Shown here: positions 7,214 through 20,716 of the stretch, one piece after another
Layout: the number at the start of each line of letters is the position of its first letter
How positions within the stretch are numbered: position 1 is the stretch's first letter
Virus record (IMG/VR): IMGVR_UViG_3300005253_000227
Location: 1-28,435 of that record
Reading direction: 5' to 3' (one strand)
DNA: 28,435 bases
Source: a virus
The notes under the pieces: generated by a model
Database searches by the model: none
The model's input: only the letters and a program-made list of their open reading frames with translations
What the model was told of the DNA's origin: nothing
Position numbers and translations under genes: made by a program

Positions 7214-7301
7214 GGGTAAGCGGCAGAGACGGGGAGCTGCGCCAGTCTGTAGAACTGGTGGACTTGTGCCTGAGTAGATTCAAATCCTATCTTACCCACC
7301 A
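7214..7301 (+). tRNA. tRNA-Tyr (anticodon GTA)
   Basis: Acceptor stem GGGTAAG (7214-7220) pairs with CTTACCC (7291-7297); discriminator A 7298; CCA encoded at 7299-7301. D stem GCAG/CTGC (7223-7226/7237-7240); anticodon stem CCAGT/ACTGG (7242-7246/7254-7258) with loop CTGTAGA and anticodon GTA at 7249-7251. A 15-base variable region (7259-7273) fits the long-arm class of bacterial tRNA-Tyr. The T loop is TTCAAAT (7279-7285). Oddities: position 8 is C instead of T, and the closing T-stem pair is A-C (7278/7286). It probably supplements host Tyr decoding. Confidence 0.85.
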
Positions 7302-8213: not shown

Positions 8214-9644
8214 GTGAATAAATCAGAAAAAGAAAACACAATCATAGAAATGGGCAACGATATATTCGCCTTTCTTAAGTTTGTTAAGATACAAGAGCCC
8301 GGACATCTGGCGTTGCCTTACATATTATGGCCTCACCTGATCGACTTTTATAACATTCTTGAGAAGTATAAGTTAATTGATTTGATAAAAGCCAAACAAA
8401 TTGGTATTTCTTGGGCATTAGCGATTTACGCCCTGTGGAAGATTTACACTCTCCCTGGTTGGAATGTATTGGAAATCTCGAAGGGGCAATCCGAGTCCAT
8501 ACAACTATTAGATAAATCACGGATTATCTACCTTAATCTACCCGAATGGATGCAGGTGTATACATTGGAACCCAATTCAGCAGAGAAGTTTGGCTTTAAA
8601 GAGAACAGTTCAAGGATTACCGCACTGTCCTCAACTGAAACCGCAGGTATCGGTGAGACCGCTGGAACAGTAATACATGATGAATCTGATTTCCATGACT
8701 GTTATGAGGTGAATTTATCTCATACTCGTGCTACAGTCGCCGATAGTGCAGAAAGACAACTCATCTCCGTCTCAACAGTGGATAAAACCAAACCCGATAG
8801 TTATTTTAAGACTCATTGGAAAGCAGCCGAAAACGGAGAGAACGGGTTTAAATCTCTTTTCTATGGTTATGACGTCAGGCCTGACCGTGGAGAGGGGTTT
8901 TATGCACAATTAGTTAAAGAGAATAAAGATACCCCGTGGGTCGTGGAAGCCAACTATCCCAGAACTGTAAAAGAAGCCCTTTCACCCATGTCAGCACAAT
9001 CCTGCTTCGATGGGGATGTTATGGAGCAACTTTGGGATAATAGGATGGAGCAGCCCGAAGTAAAACAGAACCATATCTACATCTTGTGTCCTCGCAGTGT
9101 TGGAACACAATATATAGCGGGTATAGACGTTGGGGAAGGTGTGGGATTGGATTACTCCTGTCTTACTATTGCCGGTGTAAGAGGATTGACCGCAGAGGTA
9201 GTGGCGGCGATTTACACTAATACACTAGGAACGGACTCATTTGCCTTTGATTGTGATAAGTTATGCCATGAATATGATGCTCCCTTGTTAATCGTGGATA
9301 ACATCGGTGTAGGAAGGGCGGTATGTGATAAATTAGAGTCGTTGGGATATCCCAACCTCTATTTCGAGCATGAAAAGAAGGTGGGATATTCCTTGACTCG
9401 ACCTAAGAAAAGAGAACTAGCTGTTAAATTAGTTGAAAAAATAAATGACGGGAGTTTAGCAACTCGCTGGTCACCACAGATAAAGGAACTTATGGAATAC
9501 CAGTGGATAAACGGGTATCCAGAGCCTACTAGTAGAACACACGGTGATACAATCATCCCCTTAATGTTTATAAGCGAGTTCCTGGAAGAGATTGGTATTG
9601 CAGAGCCAGCATCTATGTATGTCGCGGGAAAAAAGATATGGTAA
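8214..9644 (+). CDS. terL: Terminase large subunit (ATPase and nuclease)
   Basis: GTG start at 8214 behind GGGTGG. The 476-residue product is the DNA packaging motor. ATPase domain: Walker A variant KAKQIGISW (59-67), Walker B TVIHDE (152-157) and coupling-type motif SVST (185-188). Nuclease domain of the RNase H-like fold: D305 in IAGIDVGEG, D362 in IVDNIGVG and D445 in HGDTII. Length and order of motifs are normal for tailed phages. Packaging strategy (cos or headful) cannot be read from this alone. Confidence 0.95.
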   Translation: MNKSEKENTIIEMGNDIFAFLKFVKIQEPGHLALPYILWPHLIDFYNILEKYKLIDLIKAKQIGISWALAIYALWKIYTLPGWNVLEISKGQSESIQLLDKSRIIYLNLPEWMQVYTLEPNSAEKFGFKENSSRITALSSTETAGIGETAGTVIHDESDFHDCYEVNLSHTRATVADSAERQLISVSTVDKTKPDSYFKTHWKAAENGENGFKSLFYGYDVRPDRGEGFYAQLVKENKDTPWVVEANYPRTVKEALSPMSAQSCFDGDVMEQLWDNRMEQPEVKQNHIYILCPRSVGTQYIAGIDVGEGVGLDYSCLTIAGVRGLTAEVVAAIYTNTLGTDSFAFDCDKLCHEYDAPLLIVDNIGVGRAVCDKLESLGYPNLYFEHEKKVGYSLTRPKKRELAVKLVEKINDGSLATRWSPQIKELMEYQWINGYPEPTSRTHGDTIIPLMFISEFLEEIGIAEPASMYVAGKKIW

Positions 9645-9651
9645 TGGCCTG

Positions 9652-9660
9652 TGTTATAAT
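9652..9660 (+). promoter_or_regulatory. Predicted extended -10 promoter after terL
   Basis: TGTTATAAT (TG at 9652-9653, TATAAT 9655-9660) in the context CCTGTGTTATAATGG, close to CCTGTGGTATAATAG before the scaffold gene. No clear -35 box. The predicted start falls at or next to the ATG at 9668. Confidence 0.5.
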
Positions 9661-9667
9661 GGAAGTA

Positions 9668-9835
9668 ATGGAAACTGTATATTGCCCTAAGTGTAGATGT
9701 GGACTCTTTAAACGAGGGTTCATGGGCTATGCTTGTCATATGTGCGGGGTTATCTGGTATATCGCACAGGAAGGGTTTATTTCAGAGAAGAGACTAGCTG
9801 AAATCCATGAGGGCGTTCCATTGGATATAGAATAA
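9668..9835 (+). CDS. Zinc-ribbon protein, 55 aa
   Basis: The frame opens at 9638, overlapping terL by seven bases, but ATG 9668 (METVYCPKCRCGLFKRG) gives the natural zinc-ribbon N-terminus and sits behind GGAAG. CPKC (6-9) and CHMC (23-26) form the metal site, followed by IWYIAQEGFISEKRLAEIHE. If the promoter at 9652-9660 is used, the mRNA would be nearly leaderless. The longer form from 9638 is possible by coupling to terL. Confidence 0.6.
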   Translation: METVYCPKCRCGLFKRGFMGYACHMCGVIWYIAQEGFISEKRLAEIHEGVPLDIE

Positions 9836-10278
9836 TTAGTAGTGGCGGAATAGGTAGACGCAAGCGGAACTCCCAGCCATATAAATGGTAGAGGATGTAA
9901 TGGATGGTAGTAAAATGCCAGAAAATCACAACTTAGGTTCAGAAGTTGCAAGGGAATCGCATCTTTCATACATAATAAAAGAGGTGAAAAAGGTGGAGAA
10001 GAGTGGCCCGCATGGATTATATGTGAGCGATTATCAATGTTCAACAGGAAACAATGTTTTGAGAGGGTGGAACCAAGCCTGTACCTACATTTTGAAACGA
10101 CTAAAAGAAATAAAGTCTGAAATAAAGAGCTAAACCTTGAGAAATTCAATCCAGTGGCTCGTTGGGATACTAACTATACAAACATAGGAGCCATTAACTA
10201 GGTATATCCTGCCCTAGCTGGAAGTGGGATGCGCATACTACATCACGCATCTAGGGTGCAAATCCCTAGCTACTAATT
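9834..10278 (+). ncRNA. Split tRNA-Leu-like element enclosing an ORF
   Basis: The 5' end reads TTAGTAG then TGGCGGAATAGGTAGACGC (9843-9861), the classical tRNA-Leu D-arm sequence. The 3' end has a T-arm-like hairpin CTAGGG-TGCAAAT-CCCTAG (10251-10269) and CTACTAA (10270-10276), which pairs with TTAGTAG; two flanking A-T pairs extend this stem to nine (9834-9842/10270-10278). After the D arm, ACTCCCAGC (9869-9877) pairs with GCTGGAAGT (10217-10225), eight of nine positions, where an anticodon stem should be. A variable-arm-like hairpin GATGCG/CGCATC (10228-10233/10246-10251) follows. The loop closed by that helix is about 340 bases and contains a small ORF. No anticodon or encoded CCA can be assigned. 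It may be an intron-bearing tRNA, a tmRNA-like RNA, or an inactive relic. Confidence 0.5.
9900..10133 (+). CDS. Small hypothetical protein inside the tRNA-like element, 77 aa
   Basis: The frame has ATGs at 9885, 9900 and 9915; 9900 is best placed after AGAGG. The product begins MDGSKMPENHNLGSEVARES, contains SGPHGLYVSDYQCSTGN and ends in a basic helix (YILKRLKEIKSEIKS). Composition looks like a real protein. It has no homing-endonuclease motif (no LAGLIDADG, GIY-YIG or HNH), so it is not a typical intron ORF. It lies wholly in the loop between the two tRNA-like halves. A six-pair hairpin CAACTT/AAGTTG lies within its coding sequence. Confidence 0.5.
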   Translation: MDGSKMPENHNLGSEVARESHLSYIIKEVKKVEKSGPHGLYVSDYQCSTGNNVLRGWNQACTYILKRLKEIKSEIKS

Positions 10279-10287
10279 GAACAAAAG

Positions 10288-10328
10288 GGGCGGGTAAAGC
10301 GTTAGGGCTTACCCGCCCTTATCTATTT
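10288..10328 (+). terminator. Terminator-type hairpin before the portal gene
   Basis: GGGCGGGTAA (10288-10297) pairs perfectly with TTACCCGCCC (10309-10318), loop of 11 bases, followed by TTATCTATTT. It closes the unit starting near 9667. The same GGGCGGGTA/TACCCGCCC stem occurs at 17623-17660. The portal ribosome site (AAGGAGATAGT) follows directly. TAGGGC in the loop (10303-10308) is complementary to GCCCTA at 10211-10216. Confidence 0.65.
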
Positions 10329-10339
10329 AAGGAGATAGT

Positions 10340-11974
10340 ATGGCATTAGACGCAGGTATAATAACAGCACAGGTCTCCACCAAGGAAAGCGAACTTAAAG
10401 ATAGAACCAACAGACAGGACAGGGATTTCAAGAGGTGGCAGTTGGAGACAACTACCAAGAGAGATAGCCTGCGTGATAACGATATAGATATTGTCTCCAA
10501 CGGGTTAAGAACATTTGCTGACGAAGTCCACTCCAAACTAGCATCTGCTGACATGACGATTGCGGTTAGGTTAGCCGAGGCTGAAGGAGATGATAAAAGA
10601 GATGATGTGGGGAAACTAGAGAGATTACTCCAGTTTGCTTTTGAGAAAGGCGATGAGAGGTTAATCTCTCTCCTCCTCCCCCCGCTAAGGGATTTTACAA
10701 TATGGTGTGCCTCTATTCGTGGCTGGGTAGCTGGGAGATATCTTGTTCGTAAGGAAGGGAATGATGTTATCTTTGATTTAATGCCGTGGGACCCTCGGTG
10801 GGTGACCTATGAGGTTAATAAGTGGAGGGCTTATAAGACCTTTCGCAGTAGAGAGGAATTAGAGGAAGATTACAAGAAGAAGATAAATATCCCATTGCAT
10901 TGGTTTAATCCCTTTTCAAAGACTCCTAATAATCTCGCTGTTATTGATTATTGGAAATACGAAAAAAAAGGAGCGACTAACGCAGTAGTTTGCAACAATA
11001 CCTTTCTTAAAGAACCCAAGCACTATGATATATCTATGCCTGTTTTGCTTATGCCTATCGCTACCAGTCCTCTGATTAGAGGACTTTCCCAGTCTGAAGA
11101 CGAGAATTACGGGGATAGTATCTTTGCTCCTATCAGGGACATTAGTAAAAAGCGTGACCAGTTTGGTTCTATAATCGCTACCCACGCTAATTTAAGGGCA
11201 AAACAACCATTACTTCACTATCATGATGCTGGTATACCTGAAATTAAGAGTACCATCCAAACGGCAGACGGGGTGCTTAATCTTGTTAGGGGGAAGCAGG
11301 AAATCAAACCTACCCCCATGGAGGATATTGCCCCTACTGTGATTGAGATGTTTAACTGGTTCGAGCGAGAGTTTGAAAAGGGTTCTCTGCCAACTGTGGG
11401 CATAAATAATCCCAATCCGCAGTCAGGAACACTACAAAATCTAGTACAGGAAGCACGGAATATCGTCTTTAACCCACAACTAAGATTATTGAATACCTAT
11501 TATGCAGGGATATGCCGTTTAATAGAGGAGCAGTTAATAAGTAATGGAATTAAAGTCGATGTTCAGACTATACAGGATAATAAATACTATACAACCCAGG
11601 TTACACCAGTTGATTTGAAGAAACCCCACATAATCAAGGTTGAGTTCTCCACAGGAACTCCGTGGTCACAGATGGATAAAGCACAGCAAGCCCAGATGCT
11701 TAGAGACCTCGGGTTACCTATTGAGTGGGTGTGGGAGAATATCCTGAAAATTCAAGACCCGAAGATGCTGGGTGATTTGGCAGCGATAGAACTCTTTGAG
11801 CATAGCCCGAAGGGTGCGAAGAAAAAGGCTGCCGAAGCTCTAATAAGATTGCGGGGTGACGAGGTAGCTGCGGAGTCCCTGGTCAGGGAGTTGGATAGGG
11901 AGGAAACACAGGAGGATATGGCTATTGAGCAAATGGCTTTCGGCGGGGAAGAAGAACCACCAGAGGGATTCTAA
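10340..11974 (+). CDS. Portal protein
   Basis: ATG 10340 behind AAGGAGATAGT. The 544-residue product sits directly after the packaging block and has the features of a tailed-phage portal: a helical N-terminus, a central wing with WDPRWVTYEVNKWRAYKTF (around 150-168), a region of PIRDISKKRDQFGSIIATHA near residues 255-275, where a stem/clip-type helix is expected, and an acidic C-terminal tail (EEEPPEGF). Portals form the dodecameric ring at the head vertex through which terL pumps DNA. Family assignment rests on size, order and pattern rather than one diagnostic motif. Confidence 0.8.
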   Translation: MALDAGIITAQVSTKESELKDRTNRQDRDFKRWQLETTTKRDSLRDNDIDIVSNGLRTFADEVHSKLASADMTIAVRLAEAEGDDKRDDVGKLERLLQFAFEKGDERLISLLLPPLRDFTIWCASIRGWVAGRYLVRKEGNDVIFDLMPWDPRWVTYEVNKWRAYKTFRSREELEEDYKKKINIPLHWFNPFSKTPNNLAVIDYWKYEKKGATNAVVCNNTFLKEPKHYDISMPVLLMPIATSPLIRGLSQSEDENYGDSIFAPIRDISKKRDQFGSIIATHANLRAKQPLLHYHDAGIPEIKSTIQTADGVLNLVRGKQEIKPTPMEDIAPTVIEMFNWFEREFEKGSLPTVGINNPNPQSGTLQNLVQEARNIVFNPQLRLLNTYYAGICRLIEEQLISNGIKVDVQTIQDNKYYTTQVTPVDLKKPHIIKVEFSTGTPWSQMDKAQQAQMLRDLGLPIEWVWENILKIQDPKMLGDLAAIELFEHSPKGAKKKAAEALIRLRGDEVAAESLVRELDREETQEDMAIEQMAFGGEEEPPEGF

Positions 11975-19059: not shown

Positions 19060-19578
19060 ATGGGTGACCCAACGATTGCTGCAATAACTACCTATAACTC
19101 GCACAGGGGTACGTTCGATAACGGGGCATGTCGAGAGTTCTGGATAAAGATTCCAGGGCTTTCTGCGGCTTCGGATGCTGATGCTGCTAGTCCCATGTAC
19201 TATCTCTTGAATCCTTTTGCACAAGATATGGTGGTGCTGAACGCTCTGGCTGTAATCACTACTATAGACGCTCAAGATGGGGACATTGATGTGGGGTTAG
19301 GGGATAGTGCTGCGGGAGCGAATGACGGCGCGGAAATCATTGACAGTTTAGTCAATACCGCAACAGGTGTCTTTGAGTGTACCAATATCCAGGCTCTTGC
19401 GGGAGCTTCAAAGGCTATATGGAAGAAATCAGGGACTGCGACAGACTCGTATCTCTGTATAGCCCAAAATGCCGATGCCGATGTCTCAGCCCTTCGCTGG
19501 AACTTACTTCTAAAACTTATTCCCTACGAGGACTTAATCGGCAACGAAGGCGACCAAGCTGCTTTAGTAGTGGCGTAA
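19060..19578 (+). CDS. Tandem head-type protein, copy 1 (172 aa)
   Basis: ATG 19060 behind AAAGGAGGTAAAAT, 12 bases after the capsid stop. First of three consecutive paralogues sharing IAAITTY, YYLLNPF, NALAVITT, a glycine/aspartate-rich strand (DGDIDVGLGD) and PYEDLIGNEG near the end. The predicted fold is all-beta. Position after the coat gene and beta composition suggest a capsid decoration or head-vertex protein; this is inference. It ends DQAALVVA. Confidence 0.7.
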   Translation: MGDPTIAAITTYNSHRGTFDNGACREFWIKIPGLSAASDADAASPMYYLLNPFAQDMVVLNALAVITTIDAQDGDIDVGLGDSAAGANDGAEIIDSLVNTATGVFECTNIQALAGASKAIWKKSGTATDSYLCIAQNADADVSALRWNLLLKLIPYEDLIGNEGDQAALVVA

Positions 19579-19588
19579 AAGTAAATTA

Positions 19589-19611
19589 GAGGGGGGTGAT
19601 AAGCCCCCCTC
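19589..19611 (+). other. Strong GC hairpin between copies 1 and 2
   Basis: GAGGGGGG (19589-19596) pairs with CCCCCCTC (19604-19611) with loop TGATAAG. No U-run follows; the ribosome site AAGGGAG of copy 2 is immediately downstream. It may slow polymerase, protect the upstream RNA from exonucleases, or set the ratio of copy 1 to copy 2. Confidence 0.55.
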
Positions 19612-19626
19612 AAGGGAGAATAAACT

Positions 19627-20157
19627 ATGGCAAGTCCTACGATTGCTGCGATAACTACGTATGACCACCAGAAGGTAGGGGCTTATACAACGGGAGCAGT
19701 CCGTGAACTCTGGATTGGGATTCGAGGGTTATCCGCTGCGTCAGACCAGGATGCAGGCGGAAATGACCACCTCTACTATCTTCTAAATCCCTTCCCGCAG
19801 GACATGGTGATTATGAACGCCTTAGCGGTTATCACCACGTTGGATGCTCAAGACGGTGATATAGATGTCGGGTTGGCGAATGATGCTGTTGGAACAAGCA
19901 GTGCAGCCGAGGTTATCGATAGCCTTGTTAATACCGCTACTGGTGTATTTGAATGCACAGTAGCTCAGGCTATCGCTGGCACGGGTGCTAAGGGTATTTG
20001 GAGAAAAGAAGGGACGTCAACTGACTCTTACCTGACCTGGAAGCAGGCTACGGATGCTGATGTATCGGCATTGCAATGGCATTTGTTCCTCCAGCTCATA
20101 CCTTACGAAGACCTGATTGGTGGCGAAGGAACACAAGCTGCTGTAACGGTAGCATAG
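19627..20157 (+). CDS. Tandem head-type protein, copy 2 (176 aa)
   Basis: ATG 19627 behind AAGGGAGAATAAACT. Same architecture as copy 1: ASPTIAAITTYDHQKVGAY, RELWIGIRGLSAASD, HLYYLLNPFPQDMVIMNALA, then LQWHLFLQLIPYEDLIGGEG. A few extra residues (DAGGNDH) form a longer loop near residue 45. No cysteine-based or catalytic motif. It probably assembles with, or alternates with, its paralogues on the capsid. Confidence 0.7.
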   Translation: MASPTIAAITTYDHQKVGAYTTGAVRELWIGIRGLSAASDQDAGGNDHLYYLLNPFPQDMVIMNALAVITTLDAQDGDIDVGLANDAVGTSSAAEVIDSLVNTATGVFECTVAQAIAGTGAKGIWRKEGTSTDSYLTWKQATDADVSALQWHLFLQLIPYEDLIGGEGTQAAVTVA

Positions 20158-20181
20158 AACGAAAACAAAGGAGAATATATT

Positions 20182-20706
20182 ATGGCAAATCCAGTAATGG
20201 CTGCAATAACCACCTTCGACATAAAAAGGGATTCTTCGTCAGGCGGATGCTTGAGGGAGTTCTGGATAAGAATACCTGGGTTATCGGGCGCATCCGCCGC
20301 CACTAGCACAGACCAACCCTTGTACTACCTCCTGAACCCTATAAATGCTGATTTGGTAGTACTAAATGCCCTAGCGGTAATCACTACGGCATCTGGTGGT
20401 GTGGTTCAGTTAAACGTGGGGCTGGCGGATGATGCTGCGGGGACTAATGTGGGTGCGGAGATTTTCGACACTATCACCGATAGCGCAGCGGGCGTTCTTG
20501 AAGGAACTACACCTCAAGCTATTGCAGGCACAGGCTCTAAAGCAATATGGAAGAAGTCGGGAACGGCTACTGATTCTTACCTGACTGTTGTCCAGGGTGC
20601 TGACGCTGATGGCTCTGCAATGCGGTGGGGTCTCTTTCTGAAGGTTATACCCTATGACGACATGATTGGCAGAGAGGGCGAACAGGCCGCAGTAACAGTA
20701 GCATAA
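20182..20706 (+). CDS. Tandem head-type protein, copy 3 (174 aa)
   Basis: ATG 20182 behind AAAGGAGAATATATT. The most diverged copy: ANPVMAAITTFDIKRD, REFWIRIPGLSGAS, LYYLLNPINADLVVLNALA, then MRWGLFLKVIPYDDMIGREG. The middle strand pair differs (GGVVQLNVGLADD instead of GDIDVGLGD). All three end in AxVTVA or ALVVA, a conserved last strand. Confidence 0.7.
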   Translation: MANPVMAAITTFDIKRDSSSGGCLREFWIRIPGLSGASAATSTDQPLYYLLNPINADLVVLNALAVITTASGGVVQLNVGLADDAAGTNVGAEIFDTITDSAAGVLEGTTPQAIAGTGSKAIWKKSGTATDSYLTVVQGADADGSAMRWGLFLKVIPYDDMIGREGEQAAVTVA

Positions 20707-20716
20707 GGGGGAGCGA

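What the first reader, a model, noticed from the sequence alone, without database searches (positions are those of the whole stretch)
9834..10278. A tRNA-Leu-like fold split over about 440 bases with an ORF in its anticodon-side loop
The 5' end carries a nearly perfect tRNA-Leu D-arm sequence after TTAGTAG; the 3' end carries a T-arm-like hairpin and CTACTAA, complementary to the 5' end and extended to nine pairs. A long-range helix (9869-9877 with 10217-10225, eight of nine pairs) sits where the anticodon stem would be, and a variable-arm-like hairpin follows. The closed loop of about 340 bases contains a 77-82 codon ORF that is not a homing nuclease. The plan (tRNA-like end domain, long helix, internal reading frame) recalls tmRNA, but the end domain is Leu-like and no tmRNA consensus is present. 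An interrupted tRNA with an unusual intron, a tRNA-capped mRNA, or a decayed tRNA with an insertion are the alternatives. Deviations from a tRNA: six-pair T stem or one unpaired base, no anticodon found, no encoded CCA.
Basis: partly seen in the sequence, partly recalled or inferred. Interest (0 to 1): 0.85.

Follow-up and report, generated by a model that had tools for sequence, protein, structure and literature searches.

The report
Widespread phage tRNA-like RNA family
The stretch encodes an outsized member of a widespread, so far unannotated family of virus RNAs that keep the folded core of a leucine transfer RNA but carry a rapidly changing domain, here possibly including a small gene, where the code-reading arm should be.

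Summary
Window 9836-10276 has a 7-bp acceptor stem, a tRNA-Leu D-arm (TGGCGGAATAGGTAGACGC) and a T-arm with a 6-bp stem and UGCAAAU loop. The same ends occur in at least 145 distinct phage/prophage sequences, including SPP1, phi3T, LP65, EFDG1 and Leuconostoc Ln-9, in DNA mostly without annotation. Two independent pattern scans (D-arm, T-arm) recover each other. All seven acceptor pairs and four of six T-stem pairs covary; the D-stem changes with compensation. Rfam 15 does not match it. It is not a tRNA (no anticodon arm, G55, 13-bp acceptor/T stack), tmRNA or intron. The anticodon region is replaced by a hypervariable domain (23-213 nt elsewhere, 389 nt here), wholly replaced between near-identical Leuconostoc phages and holding a nested tRNA in two members. 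Sub-forms carry inserts between G18/G19 or G55/C56. The window copy is the longest and the only one with a long ORF (82 codons; coding status unresolved). Most likely mechanism: trimmed by host tRNA maturation enzymes into a stable RNA whose tRNA core displays a fast-evolving phage effector domain. The family is well supported; the function is inference. No prior description was found in the open-access library searched.

The parts
9834..9842 (+). 5' strand of the acceptor-like stem (AATTAGTAG; core TTAGTAG 9836-9842)
   Evidence: pairs 7/7 (9/9 with the two outer pairs) with 10270-10278; homologous stem covaries at all seven pairs
9843..9861 (+). U8-G9 and D-arm TG GCG GAATAGGTAGA CGC (G18G19 at 9853-9854)
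   Evidence: identical 19-mer in 86 family loci; D-stem compensations GTG/CAC and GAG/CTC elsewhere
9862..10250 (+). 389-nt interior replacing the anticodon arm; hypervariable in the family (other single elements 23-213 nt)
9869..9877 (+).
   Evidence: 8/9 pairs with 10217-10225; chance 6% Watson-Crick only; unsupported
10217..10225 (+). 3' strand of the proposed internal helix (GCTGGAAGT)
   Evidence: as above
9885..10133 (+). 82-codon ORF in the interior; alternative start 9900 (77 codons) preceded by AGAGGA at 9890-9895
   Evidence: P(length by chance)=0.0095; no homologue except a 100% identical contig; codon usage not gene-like: coding status unresolved
10228..10251 (+). variable-arm-position hairpin GATGCG...CGCATC
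   Evidence: sequence; overlaps the conserved AU (10249-10250) and first T-stem base, so the real stem may be shorter
10251..10269 (+). T-arm: 6-bp stem CTAGGG/CCCTAG, loop TGCAAAT (G at position 55)
   Evidence: TGCAAAT in 79/86 D-arm-selected loci; stem covaries
10270..10278 (+). 3' strand of the acceptor-like stem (CTACTAA 10270-10276), then TT; no encoded CCA
9638..9835 (+). 65-aa ORF whose stop codon ends at the base before the acceptor stem; probably co-transcribed
   Evidence: not seen after the terminase in the relatives examined
10286..10321 (+). G+C-rich hairpin followed by a T-rich tract: candidate intrinsic terminator before the downstream (probable portal) gene
   Evidence: sequence

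Best explanation
The locus encodes a member of an undescribed family of phage non-coding RNAs with a tRNA-Leu-derived core: acceptor stem, D-arm, T-arm and the bases expected to form the D-loop/T-loop elbow. The anticodon arm is replaced by a domain of variable size. SHOWN: the family, its core structure by covariation, its spread in phages and prophages (in whole bacterial genomes seen in Bacilli), the hypervariable interior, and permissive insertion sites at the interior, between G18 and G19, and between G55 and C56. INFERRED: the RNA is transcribed with neighbouring genes and cut out by the host's tRNA maturation enzymes (RNase P at 5', RNase Z at 3'), giving a stable RNA. The 13-bp acceptor/T stack, G55 and missing anticodon arm keep it out of translation. 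The core serves as a scaffold displaying a phage-specific effector domain that binds or blocks a host or rival-phage factor, whose arms race makes the interior change quickly. In the window copy the domain is expanded and may contain a small translated gene.
For: Same ends in unannotated DNA of SPP1, Ln-9, PWc, BtpYZU01 and Gut-P1 and other named phages. 86 loci from a D-arm scan; 119 of 137 T-arm matches in held loci have the D-arm and acceptor partner upstream. Covariation score 0.660 against 0.166 +/- 0.013 in shuffles; 98.5% of cells paired, at most 42% when slid. 'AT' before the T-stem in 75/86, which with the constant A15 fits a tRNA-type 15-48 pair. Interior swapped while flanks stay nearly identical in Ln-9 against LN34/UCMA21115, with a D-stem C-G to A-T compensation. 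Many members have a helix closing the interior just before the AU. Nested tRNA-Lys in L087 and nested tRNA in L106. D-loop and T-loop insert sub-forms with 6-7 of 7 acceptor pairs. U at positions 74-75 in 73% against 47% locally (n=136), consistent with 3' processing by RNase Z, which trims CCA-less pre-tRNAs (PMC8549757, PMC4810234); that B. subtilis RNase Z is favoured by such a U is my own knowledge. No dedicated promoter signal, as expected of processed transcripts. Prophage setting in Lactobacillales. The window cassette is absent between terminase and the next structural gene in 12 of 13 relatives checked; the 13th contig ends there.
Against: No expression, processing or binding data. 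Inserts at the elbow tip in the sub-forms should hinder elbow-contacting enzymes such as RNase P. Interiors are only mildly more stable than shuffles (mean z -0.77), so not all need be structured. No target of the interior was identified.
Confidence: 0.5

Rival explanations
1. Cargo or selfish scaffold: the tRNA-like ends mainly stabilise or mobilise whatever lies between them (structured RNA, tRNA, ORF), and the interior has no common function.
For: Unrelated interiors; nested tRNAs; an 82-codon ORF here; interior replaced wholesale in Leuconostoc phages; window cassette lies between terminase and portal gene where most relatives have nothing.
Against: Most interiors lack recognisable cargo; many share a closing helix before the conserved AU; near relatives seem to keep an interior hairpin through paired changes (L009/L028).
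Confidence: 0.25
2. tRNA decoy: the RNA mimics the tRNA elbow or class II body to occupy a host tRNA-binding enzyme, modification enzyme, synthetase, ribosomal site or tRNA-cleaving defence enzyme.
For: Near-perfect tRNA-Leu D-arm; conserved elbow bases; often within or next to phage tRNA genes.
Against: No anticodon mimic, so not a decoy for anticodon nucleases; position 73 varies (A in 59%), against LeuRS charging; some members carry inserts at the elbow tip.
Confidence: 0.15
3. tRNA-capped mRNA (window copy only): the ends protect an mRNA for the 77-82-codon ORF, superficially like tmRNA's plan.
For: ORF longer than 99% of shuffles; plausible AGAGGA ribosome-binding site.
Against: Unique to this phage population; codon log-odds 0.013 against 0.236 +/- 0.070 in large genes; no other long member has an ORF above 39 codons.
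Confidence: 0.07
4. Decayed or intron-interrupted tRNA-Leu gene.
For: The 5' half obviously resembles tRNA-Leu.
Against: Strong covariation and constant features absent from tRNA-Leu (G55, 13-bp stack) in at least 145 distinct sequences; no intron family match.
Confidence: 0.02

Closest known systems
tRNA-Leu (class II tRNA)
   Same: D-arm sequence, acceptor/D/T arrangement, helix at the variable-arm position in many members
   Different: no anticodon arm or anticodon; T-stem 6 bp; T-loop UGCAAAU with G55; 13-bp acceptor/T stack; interior up to 389 nt
tmRNA (RF00023)
   Same: tRNA-like end domain closing a larger domain in place of the anticodon arm; here an internal ORF
   Different: no tmRNA match; Leu-like D-arm with a D-stem; no tag frame or conserved mRNA-like domain in the family; EFDG1 carries a true tmRNA next to its own copy
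Bacterial Y RNA YrlA
   Same: anticodon-less tRNA mimic with D-, T- and acceptor-like arms plus a separate domain (PMC8394870)
   Different: YrlA's 5' and 3' ends form the Ro-binding stem and its T-loop is modified by the pseudouridine enzyme TruB (PMC8394870); here the ends form the acceptor stem, position 55 is G, and no TROVE/Ro gene lies in the ten phage records tested
Plant-virus tRNA-like structures (e.g. TYMV)
   Same: viral mimicry of the tRNA elbow (PMC4810234)
   Different: those belong to RNA genomes and use divergent topology elsewhere; this is a DNA-phage gene with ordinary acceptor topology
GOLLD / ROOL ornate RNAs
   Same: large structured RNAs of phages or mobile elements; from my own knowledge often near tRNA genes
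   Different: no Rfam match; different size and core

Membership tests
tRNA | anticodon arm with an anticodon | tested here: not met
   ARAGORN none; no conserved anticodon stem in 53 aligned members
tRNA | 5-bp T-stem with U54-U55-C56 loop (12-bp acceptor/T stack) | tested here: not met
   6-bp stem and G55; TGCAAAT in 79/86, G55 in all 86
tRNA | Rfam RF00005 match | tested here: not met
   no match at gathering score in the window; RF00005 hits in family loci are separate or nested tRNAs
tRNA | CCA 3' end | tested here: inconclusive
   not encoded here; encoded in 2 of 136 members; CCA could be added after transcription
tmRNA | RF00023 match or ARAGORN tmRNA | tested here: not met
tmRNA | tag reading frame conserved in the family | tested here: not met
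   no ORF above 39 codons in other long-insert members
Group I / group II intron in a tRNA | match to an intron core model | tested here: not met
   no Rfam intron match even at E<=10
Group I / group II intron in a tRNA | spliced product of tRNA size | not testable with these tools
   needs RNA from infected cells
YrlA Y RNA | Rfam match at gathering score | tested here: inconclusive
   none in window or six loci, but I did not verify that YrlA is among the 4227 models
YrlA Y RNA | linked Ro60/Rsr (TROVE) gene | tested here: not met
   0 of 10 phage records; control genome rings
Proposed phage tRNA-core RNA family | 7-bp acceptor + TGGCGGAATAGGTAGACGC + 6-bp T-stem with UGCAAAU loop | tested here: met
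   window meets all; the full-length model scores it only 36 bits because of the 389-nt interior
Proposed phage tRNA-core RNA family | expressed as a discrete processed RNA | not testable with these tools
   no transcriptome data available

The most novel reading that the evidence does not exclude
Phages encode an undescribed class of RNA in which an anticodon-less, translation-excluded tRNA core is a general scaffold with three expandable sites (anticodon position, D-loop tip, T-loop tip) for rapidly evolving effector or cargo domains; the window copy carries a translated gene inside a tRNA-capped RNA.
Probability: 0.3. Interest if true: 0.92.

Novelty: new variant of a known kind. Interest (0 to 1): 0.82.

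Why it matters
Classic model phages (SPP1, phi3T, LP65) and many others seem to carry an unannotated tRNA-like RNA. A hypervariable domain on a constant tRNA core suggests an arms race, and SPP1 with B. subtilis makes the question directly testable. It would extend tRNA mimicry (tmRNA, YrlA, plant-virus tRNA-like structures) to a large set of DNA phages and would correct tRNA annotation pipelines, which miss it.

Tried and rejected
Rfam at gathering and E<=10 thresholds: only chance-level hits. Tests of an intron, a decayed tRNA and tmRNA failed (see membership test). ORF homology: Pfam, PHROGs and phage tblastn gave nothing credible; viral contigs gave one 100% identical copy. Dedicated promoter: none above chance (3.7% against 3.5%); downstream terminator weak (39% against 26%). 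Apparent long interiors of L182 (443) and L156 (306) proved to come from neighbouring elements. Fixed genomic location: terminase and HNH genes are the commonest downstream matches but in few loci, so a late-operon leader role is not general. Literature: ten searches found no description; the library lacks subscription papers and most preprints.

Full report
WHAT IS THERE. The window is an IMG/VR virus record of 28,435 bases. Between the terminase large subunit gene (8214-9644; PHROG terminase) and the next large gene (10340-11974, probable portal gene by position; no family match) lie a 65-aa ORF, the element (9834-10278) and a terminator-like hairpin (10286-10321). The element has a 7-bp acceptor stem (9 bp with two outer pairs), U8-G9, a tRNA-Leu-type D-arm, a 389-nt interior ending in A-U, a 6-bp T-stem with loop UGCAAAU, and the acceptor 3' strand. 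ARAGORN finds only a tRNA-Tyr at 7214-7301. Rfam 15 finds nothing at gathering score and only chance-level hits at E<=10.

IT BELONGS TO A FAMILY. A blastn search of named phages found the 22-24-base D-arm in unannotated DNA of SPP1, Latilactobacillus, Leuconostoc, Weissella and Brochothrix phages. Each proved to have the same T-arm and the acceptor partner downstream. The latter separate cleanly by 5-bp T-stem, UUC loop and anticodon loop. An independent scan for the T-arm, used without the D-arm, gave D-arm plus acceptor partner upstream in 119 of 137 matches in held loci. Pooled, 155 elements (145 distinct) were collected. These sets include near relatives and are not independent events.

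COVARIATION. On 53 aligned members 98.5% of cells pair, against 74.3 +/- 1.0% in shuffles and at most 42% when slid. 207 cells change on both sides against 54.8 +/- 6.1, and the covariation score is 0.660 against 0.166. All seven acceptor pairs and four of six T-stem pairs covary. The D-stem is constant in that set because the set was selected on the D-arm, but the T-arm set shows GTG/CAC and GAG/CTC compensations, and Leuconostoc LN34 has the A-T exchange against Ln-9.

DIFFERENCES FROM TRNA. The acceptor/T stack is 13 bp, position 55 is always G in the D-arm-selected set, the conserved AU before the T-stem fits an A15-U48 pair, and no anticodon arm is conserved. The interior runs 23-213 nt in the other single elements and 389 nt here. 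In many members a helix of about 5-8 bp begins after a linker of roughly 6-12 nt and closes just before the AU, the variable-arm position. Average interior folding is only mildly better than shuffles (mean z -0.77).

THE INTERIOR IS EXCHANGEABLE. In Ln-9 against LN34 and UCMA21115, near flanks and T-arm are almost identical while the interior is unrelated and differs in length. In L087 the interior holds a tRNA-Lys, and in L106 another tRNA-like gene. Two further insertion sites exist: between G18 and G19 of the D-loop (about ten examples) and between G55 and C56 of the T-loop (L025, L031, L052, L064, L076, L092, L115 and L130; a 9-nt case in L063). Both sites lie among the bases that make the tRNA elbow, so the core tolerates expansions at its tip.

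DISTRIBUTION AND SETTING. The covariance model separates family members (about 52-85 bits with usual interiors; T-loop insert forms 29-56) from most tRNA-Leu genes (at most about 45); the ranges overlap, so loop and T-stem length were used as well. In whole genomes at E<=1e-10, 9 of 148 genomes of the order of Pediococcus have a copy, against none in about 590 genomes drawn around a clostridial, a Bacteroidota, a proteobacterial and an actinobacterial genome. Candidate lists per genome were capped and filters strict, so these are lower bounds. Several copies checked lie in prophages, beside HNH, terminase, tail or late-activator genes. Others sit in phage tRNA clusters (EFDG1, LP65).

THE WINDOW COPY. 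In 12 of 13 terminase relatives (57-76% identity) this cassette is missing between terminase and the next structural gene; the 13th contig ends there. Two relatives have family-like elements upstream of the terminase (L130, L133), so location is not fixed. The interior contains an 82-codon ORF (77 codons from a start with a good AGAGGA site). Its length is unusual (P=0.0095), but its codon usage is at shuffle level (0.013 against 0.236 +/- 0.070 for large genes), as it also is for the 65-aa ORF beside it (0.004). No homologue was found beyond a 100% identical contig. I leave its coding status open.

MECHANISM. Shown: a conserved, covarying tRNA-like RNA with exchangeable interior. Inferred: processing by RNase P and RNase Z from a longer transcript. 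Supporting hints are the lack of a promoter signal, the stop codon 9833-9835 abutting the acceptor stem in the window, and enrichment of U at positions 74-75 (73% against 47%). Also inferred: exclusion from translation and an effector role for the interior. I put about 0.93 on this being a real structured RNA family, about 0.7 on processing by tRNA enzymes and about 0.4 on the effector role.

NOVELTY. No Rfam family matched and ten literature searches found no description, but subscription journals and most preprints were not searchable. tRNA mimicry is a known kind of RNA; this architecture and this family appear new.

Noticed in passing
L155:1976-2326 (Enterococcus phage EFDG1): A tmRNA gene (Rfam 140.6 bits, tag AKNEELLAVA*) not annotated in the record lies immediately upstream of this phage's tRNA-like element.
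   Followed up: partly
window 19060-20709: Three tandem paralogous ORFs of 172-176 aa (MxxPxxAAITTY/F... starts), probably a triplicated virion protein; the one tested has no PHROG match.
   Followed up: no
L002 (SPP1), about 1614-1660, just after the element: A tRNA-like sequence of about 45 nt with acceptor ends and a canonical GGTTCAATTCC T-arm but little room for D- and anticodon arms.
   Followed up: no
L160, L176, L183, L189, L222, L224, L161, L200, L209, L182: D-loop insert sub-form; several inserts share GGTAAAA in the middle and TAATA before GTAGAC, suggesting a second conserved domain.
   Followed up: partly
L025, L031, L052, L064, L076: T-loop insert sub-form; inserts begin ACTAT and end CTCG(G/T), possibly an extra hairpin at the elbow.
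   Followed up: partly
L087:4968-5040 (minus strand): A tRNA-Lys (UUU) nested inside a tRNA-like element.
   Followed up: yes
L130:1159-1415: Two adjacent divergent elements upstream of a terminase 72% identical to the window's.
   Followed up: partly
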